A DNA stretch of 64,000 nt from Methanospirillum hungatei (GTDB lineage: Archaea; Halobacteriota; Methanomicrobia; Methanomicrobiales; Methanospirillaceae). Location: positions 1,178,001-1,242,000 of the forward strand of contig NZ_CP077107.1 in NCBI RefSeq assembly GCF_019263745.1, in the 5' to 3' direction. Below the pieces are notes generated by a model that saw only the letters and a list, made by a program, of their open reading frames with translations, ran no database searches and was not told the DNA's origin. This document shows positions 26,408 to 42,500 of the stretch, piece after piece (positions within the stretch are counted from its first letter, which is position 1; each line of letters starts with the position of its first letter). Both the position numbers and the translations under genes were made by a program.

Positions 26408-26820
26408 ATGATCTGTCACAAAACTACCCATTCCATCATCACCAGAATCGTTCATGAGAAAGTTGTTGGAGTGACTGGAGAGAAAAAAGCACGATCGGAG
26501 AATGACTGGAGAAAATTTTCCACCTATGGATTTTTCATCCATTTGATGAATAAAGCCCCATAAGCCATCTAATGTCATATTTTTTGTTGATCGGAGAAAA
26601 CCTAGCGGAGTAGAGAGAGAATGAAGCTGATTCATTTATACTCTCTGTACCCGGGTTTTTTCTCCAGTCATAATAAAAACTAATTATTATTGTATTAATT
26701 TTAGATTATTCAATAATTTGAGACCCTTTGACCGGAGAAAAATTTTCTCCAATAGCCCGCTGGTATTCTCCAGTCTCTCCGGAAATTATTATTCATTAAC
26801 CTCTTCTCTGCGATACCAAA
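26196..26820. repeat. Long direct repeat, copy 1 (malic enzyme tail plus noncoding block)
   Basis: About 625 bp closely related to 28301-28913 at an offset of about 2.1 kb. The first about 210 bp are the functional 3' end of malic enzyme. The rest (26408-26820) is noncoding and holds many GGAGAAA/TTTCTCC motifs, a hairpin TTCATC/GATGAA at 26534-26550 and a 17-base palindrome at 26734-26750. The stretch 26821-27024 before the ATPase gene shows nothing but A/T-rich promoter-like sequence. Confidence 0.8.
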
Positions 26821-27024
26821 CCACGGGGTTTAGATAACCTATAGGGTTTTATTGAAACCATTATCGATCTCACTGATTAATCAGGTATAAGAGAACAAAT
26901 GGATTAAAAACCTCCCCATTTTATAAAAATCATCTGGACAAACTGGTGATTTGTTGAATACATCTAATCCAACAAACATTTATTACTAATAAACAAAAAA
27001 AAGAATTTAGTTTATTGGTAATAT

Positions 27025-28269
27025 ATGATCGCCTATCATATCCTAAAAGAAGTCATTGGAGATCAACATCTGCGGTTTCATAATCAGGAACCTGGCATAC
27101 CCCGGAGAATTGATCCTGAACAGTACCGGAGCAGAAACAGAATTGTAATCATATCCGGAGTTCGCAGATCCGGGAAATCCACCTTCTTAAAACAATTAGC
27201 ACTTGGATTCCCATCTTTCTTATACCTGAATGCTGATGATGACCGGCTAATCGGAGCCACCACTGATGACTTAGGATCTCTCCTCCTCATCTGGGAGGAA
27301 TTATTTCCCGGAGTAAGAACGGCATTTTTAGATGAAATCCAGAATATTCCCGGATGGGAACGTGTTGTTCGAAGAATGCATGATGAAGGATACCGGATTT
27401 TTCTGACCGGATCAAATGCACAGATGCTGAGTAAAGAACTGGGAACCCATCTGACCGGGAGATATGTACGAGTTGAATTATACCCCTTCGGATTTGATGA
27501 ATATTGTACCTTTTATCAATTTACCTGGAAAACAACCGGCATCCATACTACCGTTGAATCTGCTGCTGCTCTCCGGCTTTTCTCTCAGTTCATTGAAGAC
27601 GGGGGATTTCCTGAATTTCTCAAGGATCCTGACCCGGAAATATTACGGAGAACCTTTGATGACATTCTGTTTCGTGATATCATCGCCAGATATGCCATTC
27701 GTGAAGTTAAGGCATTTCGGTTGTTATGCAGATACCTGTATACGAATATGACAAGAGAAGCAAGTCTTACATCGCTGGCTTCAATTGTCCAGATGAAAAG
27801 CCCGGTTTCCCTTAAAAACTGGATTGGATATCTTGAAGATAATTATCTTATCGGAAGTCTTTCACCTTTTGAATACTCTATGAAGAAACAACTCTCACGA
27901 AACCAAAAATATTATGGGATTGATACTGCTCTTCGTAACGCTGTAGCCTTCAGATTTTCAGACGACTATGGCCTTCTCCTTGAAAACATCGTGTGGCTGG
28001 AACTCTGCAGAAGAGGATATGAATTATACTGGCTTAAAGGACAATCCGAATGTGATTTTATCGTAGTTGAGCAAGGAAAAGTGAGTATGGCGATTCAGGT
28101 TTGCTGGCACCTGTCTGATGAAAATCGCAAACGGGAGTATGATGGAGTTATTGAGGCATGTACTATGTTCCCTGGTTCGGGAGGATATATATTAACATTA
28201 CAACAGGAAGAACAGCCAGCTCAAAATATCAGGGTAATGCCGGTCTGGAAGTGGATACTAGAAGAGTGA
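27025..28269 (+). CDS. AAA_14/DUF4143-type ATPase
   Basis: 414 residues. Walker A is SGVRRSGKSTFL, Walker B is TAFLDEIQNIPGWE, and the sensor LTGSNAQML follows. The C-terminal part (about 200-400) contains the DUF4143 nuclease-like core, with ENIVWLELCRRGYELYWLKG and ECDFIVVEQGK, where Glu, Asp and a following Lys-like position resemble a PD-(D/E)xK site. Such ATPases are abundant in methanogens and scattered by transfer. It lies exactly between the two long direct repeats, so it arrived with, or caused, the duplication. Cellular function unknown. Confidence 0.8.
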   Translation: MIAYHILKEVIGDQHLRFHNQEPGIPRRIDPEQYRSRNRIVIISGVRRSGKSTFLKQLALGFPSFLYLNADDDRLIGATTDDLGSLLLIWEELFPGVRTAFLDEIQNIPGWERVVRRMHDEGYRIFLTGSNAQMLSKELGTHLTGRYVRVELYPFGFDEYCTFYQFTWKTTGIHTTVESAAALRLFSQFIEDGGFPEFLKDPDPEILRRTFDDILFRDIIARYAIREVKAFRLLCRYLYTNMTREASLTSLASIVQMKSPVSLKNWIGYLEDNYLIGSLSPFEYSMKKQLSRNQKYYGIDTALRNAVAFRFSDDYGLLLENIVWLELCRRGYELYWLKGQSECDFIVVEQGKVSMAIQVCWHLSDENRKREYDGVIEACTMFPGSGGYILTLQQEEQPAQNIRVMPVWKWILEE

Positions 28270-28300
28270 ATAAGCTGCAACCAAAAGAAAAAAAGAAAAA

Positions 28301-28509
28301 TTCCAGGTGCACTCCGGGGAGCTCTTGATGCAGGTGTAACGAATATCAACAAGGAGATGAAGATCGCAGCTGCTCATTGTATTGCTTGGTAATTGAAAAT
28401 CCAACCCCAAAAAAATTCTTTCGGATCCCCTGGACCTGGGGGTGGCTCAGGCAGTGGCAACAGCGGTTGCAGAGATGGCGAAAAATGTGGGTGTGTGAGA
28501 GGGAAGTGA
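28301..28509 (+). pseudogene. Degenerate copy of the malic enzyme 3' end
   Basis: GGGGAGCTCTTGATGCAGGT at 28316 is identical to the malic enzyme gene at 26211. The match continues through the AACGA-ATCAAC-GGAGATGAAGATCGC stretch, with a stop after HCIAW and frameshifts beyond. The end (TGTGAGAGGGAAGTGA) corresponds to the true gene terminus. No start codon and no conserved frame remain. Confidence 0.75.
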
Positions 28510-28913
28510 ATAGTCAGATACTCAATACCCCCTTTTTATTATCACCAGTATCCCTCATGAGTAGGTCATGTGATTGACTGGAGAAAAAAATGACCGATCG
28601 GAGAATGACTGGAGAAAATTTTTCCCCGGAGGATTTTTCATCCATTTGATGAATAAAGCCCAATACAATCATTAAAGTGAGATTTTTTAGGGACCGGAGA
28701 AAACCAACCGAAGTAGAGAGAAGATGAAGCTGGATCATTTACACACTCTGCACCCGGATTTTTTCTCCAGTCATAATAAAAACTTATTATTATTGTGTTA
28801 ATTTCATATTACTCAATAATTTGAGAGCCTTTGACCGGAGAAAAAATTTCTCCGATCGCCTGTTGGAATTCTCCAGTCTCTCCGGAAATTATTATTAGTT
28901 AACCTCTTTTCTG
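28301..28913. repeat. Long direct repeat, copy 2
   Basis: Degenerate second copy of 26196-26820. The malic-enzyme part (28301-28509) is broken, while the noncoding part keeps the hairpin TTCATC/GATGAA (28637-28653), the CGGAGAAA/TTTCTCCG palindrome (28836-28854) and the CTCCAGTCTCTCCGG stretch near the end. Retention of these elements while the coding part decays suggests selection on, or recent origin of, the noncoding block. Confidence 0.78.
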
Positions 28914-29011
28914 AAGGATACAATATCATCTGGTTCAGATGGGGGGTCGGATTTTTCCTCATGGATTCAATTCACTGATTGTCGTGATATATGAGTGCAA
29001 ATGGTTCAAAG

Positions 29012-29106
29012 ATTAGATGGATCTCCGGGATTGGGAGGTTGTTCAGGTGGTGGCTGCGGCAATTGCAGAGATAACATGTGAATGCGAGTATGTGAGAAAG
29101 GAGTGA
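29012..29106 (+). pseudogene. Third, shorter copy of the malic enzyme 3' end
   Basis: ATTAGAT, then GGGAGGTTGTTCAGG and GCAATTGCAGAGAT, align with the last about 90 bp of malic enzyme. The final 16 bases TGTGAGAAAGGAGTGA are identical to 26392-26407. Only the very end of the gene is retained. The noncoding block that follows copies 1 and 2 is absent; a GC-rich cassette follows instead. The interval 28914-29011 shows no feature. Confidence 0.65.
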
Positions 29107-29213
29107 GAACGCGAAAAAAATACCTTATCGAAAGTAGGATTGGCGGAGTGATTTTATTCCAGGCGCATATTTCCCTGTTATCCGCATTACCCCTCGCACT
29201 TTTTCGTGACAAT

Positions 29214-29582
29214 ATGATTAGATGGATCTGGCGAACGCGGTCCTGTGATGTATGTGACGGGAAGTATGTGCATTACATCGAACGGATGACGAAAGAGCGG
29301 CAGAAGACGAGGCGGAAGGCGTTTCGGATGTGTCGTACCTGTTATGCCAGAGCCCAGCAGCGGGAGGCTGCCCAGTGTATCGCCCTTCCCGGAATGATCA
29401 AGACCGGCAATATGAGACGATGGTCGGTAGCTCTCGGGAGGTGTCATCTCTGTGATACCGGACCGATCGTCTGGTTTGATCCGGTTGAGCACTTCGGGCT
29501 GTGTGAGACCTGTTATGCCCGGGAGTGTTCGGGAGTGGGGGGAGCGAGTGAGCGAAGCGAACGAGCGACCAGCATGGGGTGA
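29214..29582 (+). CDS. Zinc-ribbon-rich accessory protein
   Basis: 122 residues from the ATG at 29214. The frame is open further upstream to 29082, but that part runs through the malic enzyme remnant. Four CxxC pairs are visible (CDVCDG, CRTCYAR, CHLCDTG, CETCYAR), forming two treble-clef or ribbon units. The middle is basic (ERQKTRRKAFR). The tail GGASERSERATSMG comes from a repetitive GC-rich DNA stretch and may be junk. The DNA is clearly more GC-rich than its surroundings. Probably nucleic-acid binding; possibly from a plasmid or virus. Confidence 0.55.
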   Translation: MIRWIWRTRSCDVCDGKYVHYIERMTKERQKTRRKAFRMCRTCYARAQQREAAQCIALPGMIKTGNMRRWSVALGRCHLCDTGPIVWFDPVEHFGLCETCYARECSGVGGASERSERATSMG

Positions 29583-29584
29583 CC

Positions 29585-29722
29585 ATGAGGCTACAGGATG
29601 CTCTTGACCGGATCAGGGAGCGGGACCGGGTGATGAGACACCGGGAGTCCCAGCAGAAATACTTTGAGAAGAACCGGGAGATGGTGAATGAGAAGAAGCG
29701 GATAGCGAGAGCGGGAGGGTGA
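29585..29722 (+). CDS. Small basic coiled-coil protein (45 aa)
   Basis: The ATG at 29585 lies 2 bp after the zinc-ribbon gene, with an in-frame TGA at 29720-29722. The product is MRLQDALDRIRERDRVMRHR followed by a second charged helix ending RIARAGG. It is a strongly charged helix with Arg/Glu heptads. It shares the high GC content of the preceding gene. The pairing of a zinc protein with a small charged helix is typical of mobile-element accessory genes. Function unknown. Confidence 0.5.
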   Translation: MRLQDALDRIRERDRVMRHRESQQKYFEKNREMVNEKKRIARAGG

Positions 29723-29757
29723 AAACCCCTTAATTTTTTGGTGCGGTATTTTGTTGA

Positions 29758-32253
29758 TTACAGTGATTGTTCTTGATTAAGCAATTGTTGTAAGAGTTCC
29801 AAAAAATTTGTGGTCATTGATTTATCTACTGCATTATCAGAATTTATAGAAGAGCAAACACATGATGGACAACCATTATTGCATGGGCAATTCTTGATAA
29901 TTTTTATTGCAATTTCAATTAGTTTAGGAAAAACACTATTCATCCTTTCTGATATGCCTATTCCTCCTGAATACTCATCATATAATGTAAATATCTGACG
30001 GTCCTCATAATCTATGTGAATGTCAATATCATGCGGGTCGCAGAGTAAAAAATAGGGGGTAACAATTTTTAAAATATTTTTTGTCCCTTCTAAGGCTGAT
30101 TCAAGAGGTTCGGAGCAATTTTCTAAAATATTTTGGATAATCTTTTGGGGGATATCAAACCAAAAACCCTTACTTTCAAAAAAAATAGGGGGTAGATGAA
30201 GATCATTTTCTTCAATTACTTCTTGGTTGTCATTGAAAGTCTTATATTTGTAGTAATTATTTTCAACAGTAACCTCCCCGAAATTACATTCAAGACTCCC
30301 TAATGAAAATGAATTTAATATTTGCGTATGATGGATATTTGTGTATTTCTGGGATTGGGTATAATTTGTAATATTTTTGGGTATAGATTCGACGAAAGCA
30401 GTATGGGCATCCAGATCTAATTTGGATACCATAAATGATTCACCCATATGAGTAATTATCGCTCCTTCATGTGCTTCCCGGTAAGCTTGTTCAGTAGTGA
30501 GGGTCTCTAATATTTTGTCACCCTTCATGATTTTGTATGAACTCGAAGGAATTGATTTTAATTCTACTTCTCTTTGAATTTCTCCATGAATACCAAAATA
30601 CTTATACCGATTATTATCAAAAACCTTCAACTTGTCTTCAATGAGTAAAGACTCAATATTCTCTTTTAGTTTATCGCCGAAAAATGTGTTATCATTCGAT
30701 GTAATTGGATATTCATCAGATGCACAGAGTAAATGGCCACAGAAAATCTTTTTGTTATTGAGATCAATCACTGCATCTTCAGGTTTTTTTGTGAAAAAGT
30801 CTTCAGGATGAGTTAAAAAAAATTGTTCTAATGCATTATCATGGCAGATCATTATTGCAAGAGAAGGTTTATTTCTCCTTCCTGATCTTCCTGCCTGTTG
30901 CCAAAAGGACATAATTGAGCCAGGATATCCAGTTAAAACTGCACCATCTAGGGACCCGATGTCTATTCCAAGTTCTAATGCATTCGATGCGATACAAACA
31001 GAAATGTTACCCTTCTTTAGGTCATTTTCAATTTCCTTTCTATCCTTTACGGTATATCCTGCATGATATGCTCTAACCCGATTTTTATACGATTTCCCTT
31101 TTTTTTCCAAATCATCGATAATCCACTTTCCAAGTTGATCTGCCATTCTCCTTCTTCTTACAAAGCATATTGTCGAAATATTATTTTGTACCAATTCAAC
31201 TAGCAAATGAACCGCAGTCCTATACATCTTCGTTTTTATGTTACTAAGAAGAATACAGGTTTTTTCTCCTCTTGCTGAACCGTCAATAGTTATGGGTTGA
31301 ATCGATTCACCGATAAGTTTAGTGCCAAACTCTTCAGCATTGCCTATTGTTGCAGAAAGAAGAATAAACTGTGGTTTTGCACCATACAACCTAGCGATTC
31401 GTTTAAGCCTTCTAATTACGTAGGCTACATTAGAACCAAATACTCCTCGGTAATAATGAGCTTCATCGATCACAACATAATGTAAATTTTTAAAAAAACT
31501 ACTCCATTGATTGTGGTGTGGGAGTACTCTGTGAAGCATGTAGGGGTTCGATATTACGATTCTTGAATTGCTTCGAATATTCGCTCTTTCACTTTTTAGC
31601 GTATCATAATCATATCGATCAACTTGTATGGGAATTTGGATAGCTGATTCAAGTTCTTGAAGTGCTTTCAATTGGTCCTGAGATAGAGCTTTTGTGGGAT
31701 AGAGATAGAGAGCTCTTACTTGAGAATTTTCTATTAATTTCTCAATTATTGGTAAATTGAATGCGAGCGTCTTTCCACTGGCAGTCGCAGAAGTGAGAAT
31801 AATATTTTTACCATTTCGAATCTGATTGATTGATTCACATTGATGAGTGTAAAGACGAATCTCTTTCTTTTTTAAATATTCAGATAATACATTGGGTAGT
31901 TGCCTATTCAAAACCCCATATTTGGCCTCTTTTGCTTTGAATTCCTTAACCTGATAAATTATATTTGAGTTTTTTTTAATTTTTTGAACGAAATTAGTTA
32001 TAGAATTATTATTTTGTTGATTCTGGCCAAAAAAGCCGGTTTTATTGAGATATTTTTCAGCTAAAGTAAGGTTATGTTCCCCACCTAAAGCAATCAAAGT
32101 CTCAACTAAATGTAAAATAATGGTGATATTTTCAGGTTTTTCTTGATGAAGTTTTTCCAGGATTTCAAGTGCTCCTGATATATTATTTGAGTTTCGAATA
32201 TTCAACGCATTTTTTTGAGAGTTGTGATTTGGTGATCCAGGGAGAGAAGGCAT
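29758..32253 (-). CDS. TPR-containing DEAH helicase with C-terminal Cys cluster (MrfA/YprA-like)
   Basis: 831 residues. The N-terminus (about 25-70) is TPR-like (ALEILEKLHQEKPENITIILHL). Walker A is TSATASGKT at 154-162 and the DEAH box is at 263-266 (VVIDEAHYY). LLSATIGN, then ASNALELGIDIGSLDGAVLTGYPG and QQAGRSGR complete the SF2 core. The C-terminal region ends with four Cys in CPCNNGCPSCVC (789-800), the DUF1998/MrfA zinc site. Relatives unwind damaged DNA (MrfA) or act in DISARM-type phage defence (DrmA). It is the last gene of an AT-rich operon, starting 10 bp after DUF1848. Confidence 0.85.
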   Translation of the reverse strand: MPSLPGSPNHNSQKNALNIRNSNNISGALEILEKLHQEKPENITIILHLVETLIALGGEHNLTLAEKYLNKTGFFGQNQQNNNSITNFVQKIKKNSNIIYQVKEFKAKEAKYGVLNRQLPNVLSEYLKKKEIRLYTHQCESINQIRNGKNIILTSATASGKTLAFNLPIIEKLIENSQVRALYLYPTKALSQDQLKALQELESAIQIPIQVDRYDYDTLKSERANIRSNSRIVISNPYMLHRVLPHHNQWSSFFKNLHYVVIDEAHYYRGVFGSNVAYVIRRLKRIARLYGAKPQFILLSATIGNAEEFGTKLIGESIQPITIDGSARGEKTCILLSNIKTKMYRTAVHLLVELVQNNISTICFVRRRRMADQLGKWIIDDLEKKGKSYKNRVRAYHAGYTVKDRKEIENDLKKGNISVCIASNALELGIDIGSLDGAVLTGYPGSIMSFWQQAGRSGRRNKPSLAIMICHDNALEQFFLTHPEDFFTKKPEDAVIDLNNKKIFCGHLLCASDEYPITSNDNTFFGDKLKENIESLLIEDKLKVFDNNRYKYFGIHGEIQREVELKSIPSSSYKIMKGDKILETLTTEQAYREAHEGAIITHMGESFMVSKLDLDAHTAFVESIPKNITNYTQSQKYTNIHHTQILNSFSLGSLECNFGEVTVENNYYKYKTFNDNQEVIEENDLHLPPIFFESKGFWFDIPQKIIQNILENCSEPLESALEGTKNILKIVTPYFLLCDPHDIDIHIDYEDRQIFTLYDEYSGGIGISERMNSVFPKLIEIAIKIIKNCPCNNGCPSCVCSSINSDNAVDKSMTTNFLELLQQLLNQEQSL

Positions 32254-32263
32254 ATTAGGCTCT

Positions 32264-33298
32264 CTATTGAATAAATTGAGAGAAATCTGTTTGTTTTATC
32301 TCTTTTCTTTCATCATCTGGTGGGGGGATATATTCCCCGGTTATCGTTTCTGCAAATTGGTTTTGCAAATGATGGAAATAATTTTTTTCAACTTCTCCTT
32401 TTGATCGATTCGCATAACAGTAGATGCAGAGGTGTGAGCATGTATTATATTGACCTATATCCTTACTTTCTATGCAAAGGCACGATTTTCTTTGTCCTTT
32501 GTCTTTTTTATTATGACGGTGGAGATATTGGACTAATTTACTATCAGTCTCAAATAAATTTCTAATAAGTGTCCCATCAATACAACTCATCGCCGATATG
32601 CCCATTTGGGTAAGATCTACCTCTTCCCCACAGGTACCCAGTTTCAATCCCCATGATTGGTTTATTACAGACAATTGGGTTGAAAAGTCGTATATCTCAT
32701 TTGGTGTGAGTTCATGTATTCCTGATATTGCGACATTATGTTGGACTTTTTCGTATGGCTTAATGTCAACAAAACTAATGATTAATCTATCAGTATATTC
32801 GTGGATTTGATCTCCGATATTCTTGATTCTGGAGAGAATTATAGGCAGTGAAAGTTCATTTGAGACTAATATTGGATCATATCGCCAAATGATCTTCTCT
32901 TTTCCGATAATGCTAGATAATTGTTTGAATGTATCTATTCGATCATTTAAAGATGGTATTCCTGGTTCATAATTTTCTAGTTCATAATCATTTAAGGTGA
33001 ATTGAACGTAGTAATTTATTTTGTAACTATCGAGAGTTTTTATTTGTTTTAACAAAGGATAAGCGTTTTTTGTCCAGAAAACAATAACTCTTGTCTTATT
33101 GAATGAAACAAAGATGGTTTGTTTCCGATTGAATGGATTTATCCAGACTAAATATCCTATTTCCATTCTCTTGATGAACCAGTCAATATAAAATGCAGGA
33201 ATATCAGTAGATCGACTGGCGGATATGATAACCGGAGCAATGGCTTCGACCTGTTTGCCATTCTCTGTAATAATTTTTACTTTTTCCCAGGGTGGCAT
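32264..33298 (-). CDS. DUF1848 protein
   Basis: 344 residues. The start region VIISASRSTDIPAFYIDWFIKRM and the segment FWTKNAYPLL are the DUF1848 signatures. The C-terminal third carries CLCIESKDIGQYNTCSHLC followed by IYCYANRS, the Cys-rich end seen in DUF1848 members. The family is related in motif style to spore-photoproduct-lyase-like radical SAM proteins, but the canonical CxxxCxxC radical-SAM site is not at the N-terminus. It sits between the methyltransferase-like gene (3 bp gap) and the helicase, inside the AT-rich operon. A DNA-lesion or nucleotide chemistry role is inferred only. Confidence 0.78.
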   Translation of the reverse strand: MPPWEKVKIITENGKQVEAIAPVIISASRSTDIPAFYIDWFIKRMEIGYLVWINPFNRKQTIFVSFNKTRVIVFWTKNAYPLLKQIKTLDSYKINYYVQFTLNDYELENYEPGIPSLNDRIDTFKQLSSIIGKEKIIWRYDPILVSNELSLPIILSRIKNIGDQIHEYTDRLIISFVDIKPYEKVQHNVAISGIHELTPNEIYDFSTQLSVINQSWGLKLGTCGEEVDLTQMGISAMSCIDGTLIRNLFETDSKLVQYLHRHNKKDKGQRKSCLCIESKDIGQYNTCSHLCIYCYANRSKGEVEKNYFHHLQNQFAETITGEYIPPPDDERKEIKQTDFSQFIQ

Positions 33299-33301
33299 AT
33301 T

Positions 33302-34456
33302 TTATACCTTCATTAGAACAGTTGACGAATATTTTGTGTTAAACTGTGTTTTATTAATATTTTCAAAAAAAGTATCCAGAAATTTTGGTTTAGAAAAAAC
33401 CTGTGTAAATGTCCACTTAATTGTCGAGTCACGATAAATGAGTGCCTTGTTATTTAAACTCAAATATTTTGCTAATTCTTCAAGCAATTTAATGTCTTTT
33501 GGGTAAACATTTTCAATAAATATCAATATACTGCCAGGTTTAATGTTGTTGAAAAAAATTCCAAAATCTACAAAAATTCCCTCCCCTTTACTATGCAATA
33601 ACTCACGGAAAGAATGCTGAAAAATATGAATGTCGGCAACCTGTATTTGAGGATAATTATCACAGTTCTGTAACAACTCGATTAAATTTTCACATTTCGG
33701 AGAAAAATTTTCAAGGATAAGTTTGTTGTTTTTGCAATAATTTGGAGAATAAACCTCTATACAAGTATTTCGAGTTGTATTCCAATATTCTCGATCAAAG
33801 AAATAGGTTGTGAGATGTTTTACTTTGGGTAGGTTTTGTGAGACAAATGTGAGCATTCCTAAATATTCTGGTGCTGGTCCACATCCAAAGATATTGACAC
33901 TGATATGATCCTGAAGTCCTTCCAGGACACCTTTTTTTTGGAGAATTGATAATTCAGAATAAATATTTTCTATGTAATAGGGAAAATAAAGGAGTAGGTA
34001 TGCTTTTTGATAATCAATAGTCTCGTATTGAATGGGTTTTTCAGAATTGGGCTGTCTTATTTCGTCGAGTAAATTCTTAATAGTAATCTTATTATCCTGG
34101 ATATAATTTTTTAGGCCCTCGTCTGTGGGATTATCCGGTCTGATTATTTTTGCAATATCTTGGAAAGGATTATGTTTTGGAAAATGTGTATGAATTGGGT
34201 TAATACCCTGATTTTTACCGTTAATATTAATTTGTCTAATATCCTTTTCAATAGCCTCAAATCTACTCACTGCTTCTGTTTCTTTTCCACGTCTCCATAA
34301 TAATGCTGCTTTGCAATATCGAGAGTATGGTGAATGTGGATTAATTTCTATTGCTTTATCAAAACATCGTTCCGCTATCTCATAGTCTTTATTATCCCAA
34401 TGAATTTTACCCTTTTTTTCCCAGATATCGCTTGATTCACTGTGATTAATGATCAT
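33302..34456 (-). CDS. TPR protein with methyltransferase-like domain
   Basis: 384 residues. Residues about 10-75 hold two TPR units (EKKGKIHWDNKDYEIAERCF, NPHSPYSRYCKAALLWRRGK). A middle region precedes a Rossmann-like domain with VNIFGCGPAPEYLG, the SAM-binding loop position, and YFFDREYW at the next strand. The later strand SILIFIENVYP fits a methyltransferase beta-5. No catalytic motif for DNA or RNA methylation is visible, so the substrate is open. It lies 7 bp after the helicase gene upstream and 3 bp before DUF1848. Confidence 0.6.
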   Translation of the reverse strand: MIINHSESSDIWEKKGKIHWDNKDYEIAERCFDKAIEINPHSPYSRYCKAALLWRRGKETEAVSRFEAIEKDIRQININGKNQGINPIHTHFPKHNPFQDIAKIIRPDNPTDEGLKNYIQDNKITIKNLLDEIRQPNSEKPIQYETIDYQKAYLLLYFPYYIENIYSELSILQKKGVLEGLQDHISVNIFGCGPAPEYLGMLTFVSQNLPKVKHLTTYFFDREYWNTTRNTCIEVYSPNYCKNNKLILENFSPKCENLIELLQNCDNYPQIQVADIHIFQHSFRELLHSKGEGIFVDFGIFFNNIKPGSILIFIENVYPKDIKLLEELAKYLSLNNKALIYRDSTIKWTFTQVFSKPKFLDTFFENINKTQFNTKYSSTVLMKV

Positions 34457-34463
34457 ATATTGG

Positions 34464-37400
34464 TTATCTTAAACAATCCTGAATTTTACCATTATATATA
34501 ATATCTAAGGATTGGTTTTCAGTTACATTCTTCAGAACTTTTTTTATTTCTTGGTAGAGAGAGTATTCTCCATCTATTCCGGTCATAATTATCCATCCTT
34601 TAGTTCGAGTCATCGCCACATACAGATAGTTTCTTTTTTCAATAATTGTATTAATCAATGTTTCTTTACGTGGATGAATTGTTGAATTTTTTAATTCCAT
34701 TTCTGTCTGTTCTAATTCTTTAGCAATCGTATCTAATCGAGGAATAATTATGAATTTAGCCTCATTCCCTTTCGCTCTGGGAGTGTGTCCAATTGTGATA
34801 TTATCTTTTGACTTAAATTTCGTTTTCTCTTTATCCGGACGAAAAATGGTTATTCCATCAAAAGGAAATTCTAAATTAATATCACATTTTTTTCCAAGCA
34901 ATAGTATTGCAATTTCTTCCTGAGGAATACCATTTGATTTCAATTCACAAATGAAATTATAGATTGCGTTATTTTCTGATTCACGATTTTCAAACAATTT
35001 AAACTCAATAATTGGCTTTATCCAAATATTTGACAAAGGATTTTTAGTATTTGAATCTCGTCGAAAGAGTTTGATCTCATTTCCTTTTGTATCAAACTTT
35101 TTCCGAGTCATATTTATCGAATACCCCAATTCCTCCCATTCGGCTACTGTTGTAATGGGGGTAATCATTCCTGATTCTCTGTATAGTCCCATCCCTATTG
35201 CTTGAGCTGCTAGAAGTGTAAGAAGAGGTGTCCGATAACAGATCTCCAATGAGATAGGATCCCCTCCCCCTTTTAATGAAAACAAATTTGAATATTCCTC
35301 CTTATTTCCGAACACTTCTTTTGCGGTTGGGATTTTTATCGTGCCTAATGTTTGGTATTCATCATAAGCAAAAATGAATCTTCTGATTGCACTATTGGTT
35401 TGAGTAATCGGTTTAATATTATGATAAATCAACCAAAAAGCGGGTTGGGCCCCGTTGTACAGGAGTTCGGGATTATCGGTAAGGATGTCTTGTGCTTCAT
35501 CTAATAGAACAACATCCCATTGGGGAGTAAATTTGGGATTTCTTTGTAGGAAGTTATTGCAGACTGCTGCGAAATTATCCTGAATTTTCCCTTTATCTAT
35601 GTAGTTTTTTGCCTTTTGATCAATTTCCATTCGAAGTAAGTAGAAAAAGCCAGGTTTATTATCTTCCCCCCATGCATGCATTACTCGGAGATTAGAATCT
35701 ATATCTATGGGACTCCATTCCAGTCCATAATATTCATATGCGATTTCCTGGAGGGTTGTTTCAACTAGATCATACAGAGATTTAGTAAAAAAAACTAGGG
35801 CAATCTTCCATTCTGGATGTAATTTATGTAAATATGCCGCTCGATGACAGAGGATAATAGTTTTCCCAGTCCCAGCTATTCCACGTATTCGCTGAACACC
35901 TTTAATATCCCTTTCAATAACATTCTGAATCTTTTTTTCTCTTTCCTGAACATAGATACTATTATCAATCTCTCTAATTGCATCATGTAGTGAAAGATTA
36001 CCTGATTTATGCAGGGTGAAGGATTCTTGATTAGATGAACTTCTGTTAATATTCCCTTTTTTAATTTCCAAACAAATCGGATTTGATTGTACCTTTGTTG
36101 TTCTTTTTCGATATTCGATATCTTCTTTTAAACGATTTGCTTGTTCATGAGTGGGATTCAAATTCAAGAAATAATTTACTCTCGCTTCTGCTTCTTCTAA
36201 ACAATCTATTTCTAATAAACTCTCGGCAAGTCGGAGATGTGTTCTGTCATTCCCCGTATTTTTTTCGATTGCTTCTATTAGGTGTCTAATAAATTCAATA
36301 TTGTCTGATTGATGTTCTACATTCTCTGGTGATATGGATTCTGATTTCTTTTGCTTTTCTAAGTTATCGAGTAATTGTTTAGCGGTTTTACATGGAGCTG
36401 ATTGATTTCCCCTTTTTATTACTACTTTAAAGCAATCCGCGGCATTATCAAGATCATTAATTTTTACAAGAGATTTCCCTTTACATAAATAACTCACGAT
36501 GTAGTCAGGATAGAGAGAAATATTCATATTAAATGCAAATATTGCATTTTCAAATTGTTTAAGTAGGTAATAACACGTTCCAATGTTATGCCAGGGATAT
36601 TTTATTTTGTCAGAGATGGTAAGTGCCTTTAGATAATACGCGATTGCTTTGAGATAATTTTTCTCCTTTTTCTCTAATTTGGCTAAATCCATCCAATTAT
36701 TGGCAGAATTTTCAATAAAATCGATATTTGATCTATTTTGTATAATATCTATATTCTCTTGGGAAAGGATTATTTTCGTAGTATTTTGTTTAGCATCAGT
36801 ATGAGGTTGATATTTTTTTTCATCAAGTTTGTATCTAGAGAGTAACCGGTCTTTTATTTCAATTGCCTGTTTGGAATTAGGATTTAATTCTAATATATTA
36901 GTTATATAAGAATATGCGATATCTCCCCGTCCTATTTTTTCATAATAAATTGCCAGATGAAACAAACACCCGATATTTGTAGGATCCAGAGATAAATTTT
37001 TAAAAAAATCTTTTAGTTGATCAATATTAGAGGTTTTTATGATTCCGATTTGACATAACTTCAAGTAGCATTTAGCAAGAACTATTACCTCTTCTTTGGC
37101 CGAAGAAATCACGAAATTCTGATGAAACAAATGATGATAAATTTCATTAATATCAGGAAATTCATTAAATGGGACGTTGTCTTTCAACATCAAATTAACA
37201 ATCTCTGATGAGTGACGAAAAGAAAAAAAATTACATTTAGATAAGAGATCAATATTTTTTTCACTATTAGGTAAAATCTGGAATGAATTTTTGATATCAT
37301 TATAGTCTGCTACGATTGTTATCGTTGAATCCGATATTATATTGTATAAATTTAAAAAAATGGACTGGAAATCTAATTGATTTGCTTTTCCAGTATTGTC

Positions 37401-37562
37401 GTTACATTGAATTTTTAGTTCATTATCAAATTTCTGAATAATTTCACATTCTTGCCAATATAACTTTCCAGTATTACTTCCGAATATTTTCCAGAATAAT
37501 TGATATTGTTTATTATTGCAATTAAGTTCCGAGGATTTTATGGATAAAACAACAAATTTCAT
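34464..37562 (-). CDS. TPR-containing SF1 (UvrD-like) helicase
   Basis: 1032 residues. Roughly residues 1-145 form an uncharacterised N-terminal domain, followed by TPR arrays (about 195-245, 285-395 and 440-480). Walker A GIAGTGKT lies at 561-568 and Walker B DEAQD at 688-692. The C-terminal motif VAMTRTKGWIIMTG is the UvrD motif VI. It is most likely an ATP-driven DNA or RNA motor acting with its operon partners. The N-terminal region shows a faint DEDD-exonuclease-like pattern without obvious catalytic acids, so it may be an inactive domain. The gene is strongly AT-rich. Confidence 0.82.
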   Translation of the reverse strand: MKFVVLSIKSSELNCNNKQYQLFWKIFGSNTGKLYWQECEIIQKFDNELKIQCNDNTGKANQLDFQSIFLNLYNIISDSTITIVADYNDIKNSFQILPNSEKNIDLLSKCNFFSFRHSSEIVNLMLKDNVPFNEFPDINEIYHHLFHQNFVISSAKEEVIVLAKCYLKLCQIGIIKTSNIDQLKDFFKNLSLDPTNIGCLFHLAIYYEKIGRGDIAYSYITNILELNPNSKQAIEIKDRLLSRYKLDEKKYQPHTDAKQNTTKIILSQENIDIIQNRSNIDFIENSANNWMDLAKLEKKEKNYLKAIAYYLKALTISDKIKYPWHNIGTCYYLLKQFENAIFAFNMNISLYPDYIVSYLCKGKSLVKINDLDNAADCFKVVIKRGNQSAPCKTAKQLLDNLEKQKKSESISPENVEHQSDNIEFIRHLIEAIEKNTGNDRTHLRLAESLLEIDCLEEAEARVNYFLNLNPTHEQANRLKEDIEYRKRTTKVQSNPICLEIKKGNINRSSSNQESFTLHKSGNLSLHDAIREIDNSIYVQEREKKIQNVIERDIKGVQRIRGIAGTGKTIILCHRAAYLHKLHPEWKIALVFFTKSLYDLVETTLQEIAYEYYGLEWSPIDIDSNLRVMHAWGEDNKPGFFYLLRMEIDQKAKNYIDKGKIQDNFAAVCNNFLQRNPKFTPQWDVVLLDEAQDILTDNPELLYNGAQPAFWLIYHNIKPITQTNSAIRRFIFAYDEYQTLGTIKIPTAKEVFGNKEEYSNLFSLKGGGDPISLEICYRTPLLTLLAAQAIGMGLYRESGMITPITTVAEWEELGYSINMTRKKFDTKGNEIKLFRRDSNTKNPLSNIWIKPIIEFKLFENRESENNAIYNFICELKSNGIPQEEIAILLLGKKCDINLEFPFDGITIFRPDKEKTKFKSKDNITIGHTPRAKGNEAKFIIIPRLDTIAKELEQTEMELKNSTIHPRKETLINTIIEKRNYLYVAMTRTKGWIIMTGIDGEYSLYQEIKKVLKNVTENQSLDIIYNGKIQDCLR

Positions 37563-37730
37563 TGAATTCTGTAGTACATAACCCGAATATTGGAAAAAAT
37601 TTAACTGCTTTACTTCTTTGTAAAAATTCCTAGATGGTTATATCATTATTTCTTCATATTTTGGGCCAATAAATCATATTGTCCGTCTATAGAGATACAA
37701 ATTAGCCTCAAATCTCTTCGTTGATGTTCA

Positions 37731-37895
37731 TTATATAATATCCAACGCCAGCAACTCTTCAGTTTCTTGATCATCTTCACATTGCTCACAGAGGCAATCT
37801 CGTGCCTCCCATTCATAGTCATCATACTCGTACTCTGTCTCTTCTCCACATTGAGAACATATCCGTATCGATGGGCCATCATCTAAGTCGGACAT
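37731..37895 (-). CDS. Small acidic double-CxxC protein (54 aa)
   Basis: From the ATG at 37895: MSDLDDGPSIRICSQCGEE, a Tyr/Asp/Glu-rich middle, then ARDCLCEQCEDD and a short acidic tail ending at the TAA at 37731. Two CxxC pairs about 20 residues apart fit a small zinc ribbon. The longer overlapping minus-strand frame (37646-37882) has no such pattern and is a shadow. It lies 168 bp upstream of the SF1 helicase gene on the same strand and could belong to the same system or be a regulator. Confidence 0.5.
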   Translation of the reverse strand: MSDLDDGPSIRICSQCGEETEYEYDDYEWEARDCLCEQCEDDQETEELLALDII

Positions 37896-38070
37896 AATAG
37901 ATACAAAATTTCTACGTTTAAATCACTTTCGAGTAATAAATTTTTTGAGACCTCCTCTCATTTTCACCCCCAGAATAGTTCAAACCCCTCCATTCTCCAA
38001 TCCATCCCCGCTCCTTGCCTTTTCCTCTACCCTGTTAAAACCTCTTTATAAAGAACCTCTAAGTATATTA

Positions 38071-38089
38071 TGCCGTCCGAGAGACGGCA
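38071..38089 (+). promoter_or_regulatory. Leader hairpin before the GC-rich hypothetical gene
   Basis: TGCCGTC and GACGGCA pair perfectly around CGAGA. The hairpin lies between a TTTATAAAG TATA box (about 38045-38053) and the ATG at 38103, so it would form at the very 5' end of the mRNA. It could stabilise the transcript or regulate translation. Confidence 0.4.
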
Positions 38090-38102
38090 GGGGTCTTCGA
38101 AA

Positions 38103-38546
38103 ATGGCCCATTTTACTCAGAAAACGGTGGTAAAGTCAGCGGTCCGGGAACTGGCAAGCCCGATTGCAGAATATACCACGTTCAATACAATCGTCCAGGA
38201 TGTCCTGGATGACAATCCATGGGGCTGTACTGCCTACGAATCAGGGGGAGTTTCCCATCCTGCAGTGAAAACCTCCAAAGAATCGTATGCAGCAAGCATC
38301 ATCTATGAGAACGCGGAAGCAAAGAAGGTAGGGCAGATTCCGGTGAAAGGGCCGACCATGGCAGCAGTCAACACGGCCGTCACCCAGATCACCGGCAATG
38401 CCACGATCACCGGAGCGATGGGGACCGGGGTCTCGGCATCCCGTGACAGTTCAGAGGATACCTTCAGCAAGGCGCTCAAGTGTCATGCCAGCAACGGGTT
38501 TTCCTTGTCACCTATACTGGACAGCATTATCTCCCGTTCCGGCTGA
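38103..38546 (+). CDS. GC-rich hypothetical protein
   Basis: 147 residues from MAHFTQKTVVKSAVRELASP. The sequence is rich in Ala, Thr, Val and Ser with no membrane span. The segments NPWGCTAYESGGVSHPAVKT and TGNATITGAMGTGVSASRDS stand out. No known family is recognised. Codon use is much more GC-rich than the island to its left, so it is either chromosomal and well expressed or from a different donor. A TATA box and a leader hairpin indicate that it is a real transcribed gene. Confidence 0.65.
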   Translation: MAHFTQKTVVKSAVRELASPIAEYTTFNTIVQDVLDDNPWGCTAYESGGVSHPAVKTSKESYAASIIYENAEAKKVGQIPVKGPTMAAVNTAVTQITGNATITGAMGTGVSASRDSSEDTFSKALKCHASNGFSLSPILDSIISRSG

Positions 38547-38699
38547 CTCTCTTAGAACCACGCCCGGGATCTGGGCTAACGCGATCGCGGCTCTGGCATA
38601 AGTATCACCTTTTCTTTTTCAGGAAGTGGTTGAAAAGATTTTTTTATTCCACGAATAGAAGAAAAATTGATTGAATATAGTATTTTGTTTCGATAACAC

Positions 38700-39716
38700 T
38701 TACAGGCTACCACTTAACCACTGCAGAGCAAGACTGCTTGTCGCTACAAAGAACCAGAGAATAGCCCCAAGAGCAACTGGTTTCCATCCCGCATCTCTGA
38801 TTGCGGTGAGAGAACTGCTCATCCCAACTGCTGCCATGGCTACTGTTGTCCCAAAATGTGCCAGGAAATGAATCGGATCATTCCATGTTTTAGGAATCAG
38901 TCCAATGGATTGAACTGCAGCAGCGAGGATGAACAGGATCAAAAAGGGAGGGATAAGCTTGTAGAACACGGTAGTCCGTTGTTCTTCTCCAGGCAACTGC
39001 GAATTCAACGACCAAGTTTTAAATAACGCCAAGGGAATGATGGCAAGTGTCCGGGTTAATTTCACTACGACCGCATATGTGGCAGCGACAGAGCCGTACA
39101 CCGTTGCTGCGGCAACGACTGAAGATGTGTCATTGATAGCAGTCCCGGCCCACATACCGAATGCTTCCTGAGATAAACCAAGAATATGGCCAATCGTGGG
39201 AAAAAGAACCGCACCGAGGACATTATAGAGAACAATGACAGTTATTGAAACAGCTATAGCTGGACCTGATGCCCCAATTACTGCGCTCATTGTTGCTATT
39301 GCAGAAGCACCACATATGGCCGTTCCGTATGTGATAAGAGAGCGAATATGTTCCTCTATTTTCATAGCTCGGCCGATAACAAGACCTGCTATTAAACAGA
39401 TAACCAGTGTCCCTATCATGACAGGAAGACCTGAACCTCCAATCTGTGCAACCTGGGTTAGTGACATTCCTGCACCTAAAAGCACTATCGAGCCTTGCAA
39501 TATTTTTTTTGAGGCGAACGACACCCCTTCAGCCCATTCATTTCTAAGACCAAATAATTGACCGACAACCAGTCCAATGAGGATAGCAATTACTGGTCCG
39601 CCGAGAACAGGAACAACAAGGCCCACACCCCAGGCAATACTGCCAATAATAAGGGGTGGAATCAGACCGATAAGAAGTTTCAGACATGAGGAAACCGGCC
39701 CATATAACTGCATCAC
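38700..39716 (-). CDS. YeiH-family putative sulfate exporter
   Basis: 338 residues with about ten membrane helices. SIVLLGAGMSLTQV, the motif TYGTAICGASAIATMSAVIG and WAGTAINDTSSVVAA are the UPF0324/YeiH signatures. Members are annotated as sulfate exporters, though transport evidence is thin. It stands alone at the right side of the accessory island. Confidence 0.85.
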   Translation of the reverse strand: MMQLYGPVSSCLKLLIGLIPPLIIGSIAWGVGLVVPVLGGPVIAILIGLVVGQLFGLRNEWAEGVSFASKKILQGSIVLLGAGMSLTQVAQIGGSGLPVMIGTLVICLIAGLVIGRAMKIEEHIRSLITYGTAICGASAIATMSAVIGASGPAIAVSITVIVLYNVLGAVLFPTIGHILGLSQEAFGMWAGTAINDTSSVVAAATVYGSVAATYAVVVKLTRTLAIIPLALFKTWSLNSQLPGEEQRTTVFYKLIPPFLILFILAAAVQSIGLIPKTWNDPIHFLAHFGTTVAMAAVGMSSSLTAIRDAGWKPVALGAILWFFVATSSLALQWLSGSL

Positions 39717-40156
39717 ATATGTGTTGAGCCGGATGAGGCTTTTAATATTTCTAAGGCATCTATCCTTTCACTCTGCCTTTTTTCAGGTTGTTTATCAGGT
39801 AATGCGGGAGATGTATCTAATCTCTAATTCCACACTTTATGGAAGATGAATAATTCAGAATGAATAGTTGTCCTTAAGAAGAGGGACAGGATTTCTCACA
39901 GGGCCGCGGATCGGAATGATCCATCCAATGTCTGAATGGAATATTAGGGATGCTTACCTCCATCTGGATGTGAATCCAGTGTTGTATTGAATTTTCAGGG
40001 AGTTCAAAAAACAATGGTGAACTTGTTTTTTTACAGTTCATCTACTACAATAGTATCCTTACCAACCCAGGTAAGTATTAAGATCTCAACCCTGGTGAGT
40101 TATTGGCCCTGTGTAGTCAGGTGGTAATGATGAAACTGAAAAGGCCGCAGTTGAGC
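39717..40156. other. Intergenic stretch without a gene
   Basis: 440 bp between two minus-strand genes. No convincing ORF or tRNA was seen. One perfect hairpin, CTGGAT and ATCCAG around GTGA (39964-39979), lies about 240 bp before the YeiH start and could be a terminator for a plus-strand transcript or chance. The rest is A/T-rich with scattered T runs. Confidence 0.4.
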
Positions 40157-41904: not shown

Positions 41905-42500
41905 GATATCATATCGCTGGAAGATGATACTTCCATGTCCCGGTCGCCATAGTAACAAGCATCTTCTGCTTCAGTATGCAATGGCATTTTCAACCGCATC
42001 ATTTGTCTGAATCTGATAGGATCTGAGCCGTTGATGTGTATTTGGTGTGCTCAGGATTTTTAGGGAGACTACACCAAAATCTGAAGAGTATCGTTCATGA
42101 AGAGCCTGCGGAGTATGAAGCCGTTTGATCTCATGAGACTGGTTCTGTTCATGACGGACATTAATGAACCAGTTGATCATTCCATTGGAAGAGTAGAGAA
42201 AAGGAACCCGATATTCATCAAATGAGAACAAAGCAACAGAATCAGGGATCCCTTTTGCATATCTTCTTGCCTGAGTCTGGACTTCCTGTGGTCCGACAGA
42301 TTCTCGTTTCGCTTCTATGACTCCGACAATTTTCCGTTTAGAATGAGGGCATAATCTGCCGGACCGTTGTTAGTTGGATATTCTTCAAGGGCAACGGCAT
42401 GATACGAGGAAAAGGGAGTTTTGTCTGTATAGGGCTGAATGTCCCATCCGGATTTGCGAAGGAGTGGATCGATCTTCTATCCTGGTAACTCTCTCTCATG
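41905..42500 (-). pseudogene. hsdR: Decayed type I restriction enzyme R subunit (hsdR) N-terminus
   Basis: Read on the minus strand, KSGWDIQPYTDKTPFSSYHA and EEYPTNNGPADYALILNGK form the HsdR nuclease region. A one-base deletion near 42332 shifts frame, then VGVIEAKRESVGPQEVQTQA and DFGVVSLKILSTPNT continue to LRSYQIQTNDAVENAIAY and a stop. A second shift leads to MLVTMATGTW, the remains of the Walker A site MATGTGK. The whole C-terminal helicase is gone. No hsdM or hsdS is nearby. Confidence 0.75.

What the first reader, a model, noticed from the sequence alone, without database searches (positions are those of the whole stretch)
29758..37895. Undescribed TPR-helicase operon in an AT-rich island, a candidate defence or DNA-repair system
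Four minus-strand genes with gaps of 7, 3 and 10 bp: TPR+SF1 helicase, TPR+methyltransferase-like, DUF1848, TPR+DEAH helicase with CPCNNGCPSCVC. Three of the four have N-terminal TPR, suggesting a physical complex. DUF1998-type helicases occur in DISARM and in MrfA DNA repair, but the combination with an SF1 helicase and DUF1848 matches no system I know. The block is visibly far richer in A/T than its neighbours and lies beside an insertion hot spot and an hsdR remnant.
Basis: partly seen in the sequence, partly recalled or inferred. Interest (0 to 1): 0.85.

Follow-up and report, generated by a model that had tools for sequence, protein, structure and literature searches.

The report
Archaeal helicase and SAM-enzyme island operon
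A methanogen carries an inserted four-gene cluster that joins two DNA helicases to a probable radical enzyme and a methyltransferase-like protein; pieces of the cluster recur beside virus-defence genes in other microbes and match no named system, so it is a good candidate for an undescribed defence or DNA-lesion-processing machine.

Summary
The operon is real, as described: four minus-strand genes (29758-37562; gaps 10, 3, 7 bp) in an AT-rich insertion (GC 0.31-0.34 against 0.435 outside) that four congeners lack. It is a composite. Module 1 is an SF1 helicase related to the helicase of Helicase+DUF2290 plus a YprA/MrfA helicase; the pair recurs in three other genomes. Module 2 is DUF1848 plus an MT-like protein; all six genomes of the order with MT have DUF1848 next to it, and in three of these (including this one) SF1 is adjacent too. 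The full four-gene set was found only here. Structure prediction places MT with METTL17/Rsm22 (Z 21) and DUF1848 with radical-SAM barrels (Z 9), its CxxxCxxC lying at the C-terminus, as in a circular permutation. Of the 80 closest DUF1848 loci elsewhere, 42 have an MTase-like domain within 5 kb, often fused or linked to SF1 or SF2 helicases. AlkB joins this set in some bacteria. Neighbours include Dnd, Hma, Druantia III, CRISPR and BREX-related genes. No paper in the open library mentions DUF1848. Best reading: a defence-island cassette in which helicases open nucleic acid for SAM-dependent base chemistry. Function is untested; lesion repair is the main rival.

The parts
34464..37562 (-). Gene 1, 'SF1': 1032 aa; N-terminal ~150 aa of unknown fold, TPRs (~190-480), UvrD-like SF1 helicase (~545-1023)
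   Evidence: TPR_2 44 bits, UvrD_C_2, SLFN-g3 helicase; PADLOC 'Helicase' PDLC03002, 204 bits over 528-1023; motifs conserved in 7 relatives; no PDB match for residues 1-150
33302..34456 (-). Gene 2, 'MT': 384 aa; short TPR then a METTL17/Rsm22-like class I methyltransferase fold with Y-F-P-Y-Y-I-E and G-C-G-P-A-P-E motifs
   Evidence: model pLDDT 79; Foldseek top hits METTL17/Rsm22, E 1.9e-7; VIA Z 21.3, 249 residues, rmsd 3.3; next family Z 14.6
32264..33298 (-). Gene 3, DUF1848: 344 aa; TIM-barrel-like, radical-SAM-type CxxxCxxC (C287, C291, C294) near the C-terminus plus invariant C223, C239, C273, C275
   Evidence: Pfam 313 bits; 43-sequence alignment; model pLDDT 92; VIA: 22 of the 23 chains with Z above 8 are radical SAM enzymes; permuted copy matches Pfam Radical_SAM, E 0.013
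29758..32253 (-). Gene 4, YprA/MrfA-type SF2 helicase with Zn-binding MZB domain (CPCNNGCPSCVC); second copy in this genome
   Evidence: MZB, WHD_HRQ1; TIGR03817 537 bits; B. subtilis YprA/MrfA 6znp, E 3.4e-133 over 82-811
37734..37896 (-). Small acidic ORF with two CxxC pairs (about 54 aa) upstream of gene 1; possible leader gene, membership uncertain
   Evidence: sequence only
28301..40147 (.). Stretch absent from the corresponding place in four congeners (insertion that holds the operon, a YeiH-type transporter and fragments); exact ends uncertain
   Evidence: collinear flanks 20.4-26.4 kb or 26.9-28.3 kb and 42.4-51 kb in L224-L227

Best explanation
It is a horizontally acquired cassette of the kind found in defence islands, assembled from two modules. 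Shown by computation: (i) a helicase module, an SF1 helicase of the family used in Helicase+DUF2290 and NERD-UvrD proteins together with a YprA-type SF2 helicase; (ii) a SAM-chemistry module, DUF1848 (probable circularly permuted radical-SAM-type enzyme) with a METTL17/Rsm22-like methyltransferase-fold protein. Inferred: the helicases recognise and open DNA (or RNA structure) at invading or stalled nucleic acid, and the DUF1848-MT pair then acts on the exposed single strand, either placing or removing a small (methyl/alkyl-type) base modification. The place of AlkB in the same gene sets of cyanobacteria and Bacteroidota suggests that the chemistry concerns N-alkylated bases in single strands; AlkB needs oxygen, which could explain its absence from the methanogens. 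The most likely biological role is anti-virus or anti-plasmid conflict, as destruction, marking, or repair of host nucleic acid under attack.
For: MT and DUF1848 adjacent in 6 of 6 MT-bearing genomes of the order, in 5 genera or more. SF1-MT-DUF1848 also in L054 and L058; SF1-YprA in L060, L061, L062. Among 80 DUF1848 loci from other genomes (mostly bacteria), 42 have an MTase-like domain within 5 kb and 31 of these also a helicase, against 0 of 431 genes farther away (the profiles were built from these loci). Domain fusions: MTase+UvrD (L077), MTase+DEAD helicase (L142, L109), DUF1848+MTase (L076). AlkB overlaps DUF1848 by 4 nt in L101 and L109 and adjoins MT on cyanobacterial plasmids. Defence neighbours: DndC-DndD upstream of SF1 in L054 and HmaA beside SF1-YprA in L061; DruE of Druantia III in L142; type III-B CRISPR-cas; DUF1156-DUF499 BREX-related genes (PMC12839542). 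Insertion absent from four congeners. Helicase+DUF2290 inhibits T7 (PMC9122126).
Against: No nuclease or toxin domain was recognised in the operon. The full set is seen once. YprA of this type belongs by score with the DNA-repair MrfA, not with the DISARM/Druantia/ARMADA helicases. Solo DUF1848 and solo YprA are near-housekeeping in the order. The radical-SAM assignment rests on fold, Cys motif and a sub-threshold Pfam match; a permuted profile found no radical-SAM chain in the PDB by sequence. Co-location in islands does not prove defence.
Confidence: 0.5

Rival explanations
1. A mobile DNA- or RNA-lesion repair operon: extra copies of the repair helicase MrfA/YprA and of DUF1848, acting with an SF1 helicase and MT to repair alkylated or cross-linked nucleic acid, as ALKBH3 works with the helicase ASCC3 in human cells.
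For: The YprA copy aligns end to end with B. subtilis MrfA, a mitomycin C repair factor (PMC11194089). AlkB homologues in these sets are closest to human ALKBH3 (E 5e-48). ALKBH3-ASCC3 precedent: PMC8254245. The repair branch of YprA has no other conserved partner than MrfB (PMC12458937).
Against: Patchy, island-bound distribution beside defence systems; SF1 partner family is a proven antiphage component in Helicase+DUF2290; no MrfB-type exonuclease recognised in the operon.
Confidence: 0.3
2. Two unrelated insertions that happen to be adjacent: an SF1-YprA pair and an MT-DUF1848 pair, with no shared function.
For: Each pair occurs without the other (L055-L057 versus L060-L062); the full set was found only here.
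Against: Gaps of 3-10 bp, same low GC and GC3; SF1-MT-DUF1848 in the same order in L054 and L058; an MTase-like domain fused to SF1 or SF2 helicases next to DUF1848 in bacteria.
Confidence: 0.12
3. An RNA-modification or ribosome-related operon: METTL17/Rsm22-like MT and a radical-SAM enzyme modify rRNA or tRNA, with helicases as RNA chaperones, perhaps protecting ribosomes during attack.
For: MT's closest fold is a mitoribosomal assembly factor; the best radical-SAM matches of DUF1848 include the RNA modifiers Elp3 and RlmN.
Against: YprA/MrfA is a DNA helicase; no ribosomal or tRNA genes nearby; METTL17's Fe-S cysteines are not conserved in MT.
Confidence: 0.08

Closest known systems
MrfA/YprA (with MrfB) mitomycin C repair, Bacillus subtilis
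   Same: Gene 4 is a full-length YprA/MrfA-type helicase with the MZB Zn domain
   Different: Partners are SF1, MT and DUF1848, not the DEDDh exonuclease MrfB; this is a second, diverged copy in the genome
Helicase+DUF2290 antiphage system (PMC9122126)
   Same: Gene 1's helicase part matches the PADLOC 'Helicase' profile (204 bits), and relatives in the order adjoin a protein of the DUF2290 type (L068 confirmed)
   Different: No DUF2290 gene; long TPR N-terminus; partnered with MT-DUF1848 and YprA
DISARM / ARMADA / Druantia / Dpd (YprA-family defence systems, PMC12458937)
   Same: A DUF1998/MZB-type helicase in an operon with other helicases and a methyltransferase-like gene
   Different: Helicase scores far better to MrfA-type models (537 bits) than to DrmA (81), DruE (137) or DpdJ (66); no DrmB, PglX-like MTase or PLD gene; DUF1848 is not mentioned in that paper
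PADLOC RT-associated DUF1848 (DRT set)
   Same: DUF1848 protein (131 bits)
   Different: No reverse transcriptase among the four genes
METTL17/Rsm22
   Same: Predicted fold (Z 21.3)
   Different: No conserved Fe-S cysteines; sits in a mobile operon, not with ribosome genes

Membership tests
MrfAB repair pair | Full-length YprA/MrfA helicase with MZB domain | tested here: met
   6znp E 3.4e-133 over residues 82-811; MZB 60 bits
MrfAB repair pair | DEDDh exonuclease MrfB next to it | tested here: not met
   no exonuclease domain in any of the four proteins; residues 1-150 of gene 1 match nothing in the PDB by sequence
DISARM | DrmA-type helicase as best match | tested here: not met
   DrmA 81 bits against 537 for TIGR03817
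DISARM | DrmB and a DNA methyltransferase (DrmMI/MII) | tested here: not met
   no DrmB or DrmM profile among matches; gene 2 has no PADLOC match
Helicase+DUF2290 | SF1 helicase of this family | tested here: met
   PDLC03002, 204 bits over 528-1023
Helicase+DUF2290 | DUF2290 gene adjacent | tested here: not met
   no DUF2290 match in the operon; present in L068
Radical SAM superfamily | CxxxCxxC cluster motif | tested here: met
   C287, C291, C294 invariant in 43 sequences
Radical SAM superfamily | Radical-SAM barrel | tested here: inconclusive
   Elp3 9.4, RlmN 9.1, BioB 9.0 and other radical SAM enzymes lead the list, but other TIM barrels follow at 7-8; Foldseek itself gave only weak matches
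Radical SAM superfamily | Cluster motif after the first strand, at the N-terminal end of the barrel | tested here: not met
   motif at residues 287-294 of 344. Moving that part to the front brings out Pfam Radical_SAM (E 0.013 for the window protein, profile 5-90; E 0.0045 for L147; both below the curated cut-off), which the native order did not at E<=1
Radical SAM superfamily | [4Fe-4S] cluster and reductive SAM cleavage | not testable with these tools
   needs purified protein
METTL17/Rsm22 | Methyltransferase fold with METTL17-like N-terminal helical part | tested here: met
   Z 21.3, 249 residues, rmsd 3.3, 6-7 Z units above other MTases
METTL17/Rsm22 | Fe-S cluster cysteines | tested here: not met
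   no invariant Cys column in 9 sequences
METTL17/Rsm22 | Binding to small-subunit rRNA | not testable with these tools
   needs a binding assay

The most novel reading that the evidence does not exclude
[quoted passage not shown] the window shows a four-gene archaeal form.
Probability: 0.3. Interest if true: 0.9.

Novelty: new variant of a known kind. Interest (0 to 1): 0.62.

Why it matters
If true, it would give DUF1848 (a widespread family with no paper in the open library searched) a setting and a testable activity, place a METTL17/Rsm22-type fold outside ribosome assembly, and add a SAM-chemistry-plus-helicase class to prokaryotic conflict systems. It also gives the repair branch of the YprA helicases a conserved partner other than MrfB.

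Tried and rejected
Close-relative scan of genome contigs with the SF1 protein: 36 pattern matches, none confirmed. MT and SF1 scans of viral contigs: none confirmed; MT in phages: none. DISARM, Druantia, ARMADA and Dpd membership rejected on profile scores and missing partners. PDB sequence search with DUF1848, native and permuted: no radical-SAM chain. PDB sequence search with MT matched only TPR proteins. Gene 1 residues 1-150 looked to me like a degenerate exonuclease fold by eye; no sequence support, not claimed. A centre in Cyanobacteria for the genome search was not accepted, so AlkB-MT was not surveyed across cyanobacterial genomes. The YprA tree joins the four SF1-linked copies (96/98), but the window copy has a very long branch and the tool warns of long-branch attraction. 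Flank genes YeiH and malic enzyme lie apart in congeners, so the empty site was read from longer collinear alignments instead.
Full report
OBSERVATION. GC is 0.315-0.342 per gene (GC3 0.26-0.30) against 0.435 for the rest of the window. Pfam supports TPR plus UvrD-like helicase, TPR, DUF1848, and DEAD/Helicase_C/WHD_HRQ1/MZB; the TPR of the last is below cut-off. I call them SF1, MT, DUF1848 and YprA.

IT IS AN INSERTION. The window lies in a 3.39-Mb single-contig genome of a methanogen; one congener has 3,544,738 bases, which I take from memory to be Methanospirillum hungatei, so the genus is probably Methanospirillum. In four congeners the flanks are collinear (window 20-26 kb or up to 28.3 kb, then 42.4-51 kb) and the stretch that holds the operon is missing. 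In G208 the flanking ATPase gene (91% identical) and the sequence that matches window 43.1 kb lie 21 bp apart. The site is a hot spot: direct repeats of about 380 bp flank the ATPase gene at 27025-28269, and broken 3' ends of the malic enzyme gene follow it.

EXTRA COPIES OF RESIDENT GENES. YprA is found in 150 of 232 genomes of the order, nearly always once; this genome has two. DUF1848 is found in 96 of 232, nearly always once; this genome has two, the second in a place shared with a congener (response regulator, acetyltransferase, DUF1848). The operon copies are the diverged ones. The SF1-linked YprA copies of four genomes group together with support 96/98, with a long-branch warning.

TWO MODULES. 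Searching all 232 genomes held of the order: SF1 relatives in 15; full-length or near-full MT relatives in six. All six MT genes adjoin DUF1848. SF1-MT-DUF1848 occurs in L054 and L058 besides the window; L058's contig ends 139 bp after DUF1848, so a YprA gene there cannot be excluded. SF1-YprA occurs in L060, L061 and L062. Other SF1 relatives pair with a NERD protein (L063) or with DUF2290 (L068 confirmed by Pfam; L069-L071 have a gene of like size). The complete set of four was found only in the window's genome. A sample of 393 genomes of the phylum added no further MT.

BEYOND THE ORDER. An MTase-like domain lies within 5 kb in 42; 18 of these have a UvrD-type and 13 a DEAD-type helicase with it; of 431 genes farther away none carries it. 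The profiles were built from these loci, so the count describes recurrence and is not an independent test. Architectures include MTase>small UvrD>unknown helical protein>DUF1848 in Bacteroidales, DUF1848>MTase-UvrD, DUF1848>MTase-DEAD, and DUF1848 fused to the MTase domain. PADLOC's NERD+UvrD profile covers residues 448-1030 of the MTase-UvrD protein, so a NERD nuclease probably lies between the two. Profile comparison joins the window MT to the Bacteroidales MTase (P 1.9e-6) and, more weakly, to the fused domain (P 6e-4).

ALKB. On cyanobacterial plasmids MT-like genes adjoin AlkB: Synechocystis pSYLA and pSYSA next to type III-B cas genes, Picosynechococcus in a DUF1156-DUF499 locus followed by what reads as a split SF1 helicase, and Planktothrix with DUF1848 on the other side of MT. 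In two Bacteroidota loci AlkB overlaps the start of DUF1848 by 4 nt, and an MTase-DEAD fusion follows. The Planktothrix AlkB is closest to human ALKBH3.

STRUCTURES. MT (model pLDDT 79) matches METTL17/Rsm22 at Z 17.5-21.3, the next proteins at 14.6. DUF1848 (pLDDT 92) has weak Foldseek matches, but on re-alignment 22 of the 23 chains with Z above 8 are radical SAM enzymes. The alignments begin about 30 residues after the place where those enzymes carry CxxxCxxC (positions from my knowledge), and DUF1848 carries that motif at its C-terminal end (C287, C291, C294, invariant in 43 sequences). When the C-terminal part is moved to the front, Pfam's Radical_SAM model appears at E 0.013 and 0.0045, in one case across the join; it did not appear at E<=1 in the native order. 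This is suggestive of a circular permutation, not proof. Four further invariant cysteines (C223, C239, C273, C275) could hold a second metal site.

DEFENCE CONTEXT. DndC-DndD lie just upstream of SF1-MT-DUF1848 in L054; HmaA (2043 bits) lies beside SF1-YprA in L061; a GajB/RT-associated-type helicase is near MT-DUF1848 in L056; DruE of Druantia III ends next to DUF1848 in L142. The first ten hits were chosen for size, so these are examples and not a rate. The helicase family of SF1 includes the antiphage Helicase+DUF2290.

MECHANISM. Shown: gene set, motifs, recurrence, insertion. Inferred: helicases expose single strands, and the DUF1848-MT pair performs SAM-based chemistry on them. AlkB as an aerobic companion points to alkyl-type base changes. 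Defence is my first choice (about 0.5) because of location and mobility; repair is second (about 0.3), because YprA is of the repair type. Both could hold if the system repairs host nucleic acid damaged during attack.

NOVELTY. A full-text search for DUF1848 returned no paper in a 5.39-million-paper open library (subscription papers are not covered), and the 2025 survey of YprA helicases does not mention it. The parts are known kinds; the combination matches none that I tested.

Noticed in passing
window 26427-28913: A DUF4143-type ATPase gene (27025-28269; PADLOC PDC-S01, 355 bits) sits between two direct repeats of about 380 bp (82-86% alike); broken 3' ends of the malic enzyme gene follow at 28301-28513 and 29019-29168.
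   Followed up: partly
window 41974-42369 (-): Fragment resembling the N-terminus of HsdR (HSDR_N, E 8e-4, below cut-off).
   Followed up: partly
window 37734-37896 (-): Small acidic ORF with CxxC...CxxC upstream of the SF1 gene; could be a leader gene of the operon.
   Followed up: no
window 38070-38546 (+): GC-rich ORF of 158 aa at the upstream (gene 1) side of the AT-rich block with no Pfam match.
   Followed up: no
L177 9293-10816; L181 5284-6807: AlkB-MT gene pair beside cas1-cas2 and type III-B cmr genes on Synechocystis plasmids pSYLA and pSYSA.
   Followed up: partly
L117 6093-11044 and like loci; L160 4399-11032: Four-gene operon of Bacteroidales: MTase, small UvrD-type helicase, a 580-820-aa protein with no Pfam family, DUF1848; one copy is on a contig catalogued as viral.
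   Followed up: partly
L101 1113-2743; L109 9342-11008: AlkB gene overlapping the start of DUF1848 by 4 nt, followed by an MTase-DEAD helicase fusion.
   Followed up: partly
L142 3595-15209: DruE of Druantia type III ends 1 bp before DUF1848, which is followed by an MTase-DpdF-like helicase fusion.
   Followed up: no
L269 8457-9470; L270 8918-9925: Solo DUF1848 in the same gene order (response regulator, acetyltransferase, DUF1848) in two species: a resident version of unknown function.
   Followed up: partly
L180 6912-10142: Two adjacent ORFs after MT that together read like one SF1 helicase, perhaps split by a frameshift.
   Followed up: no
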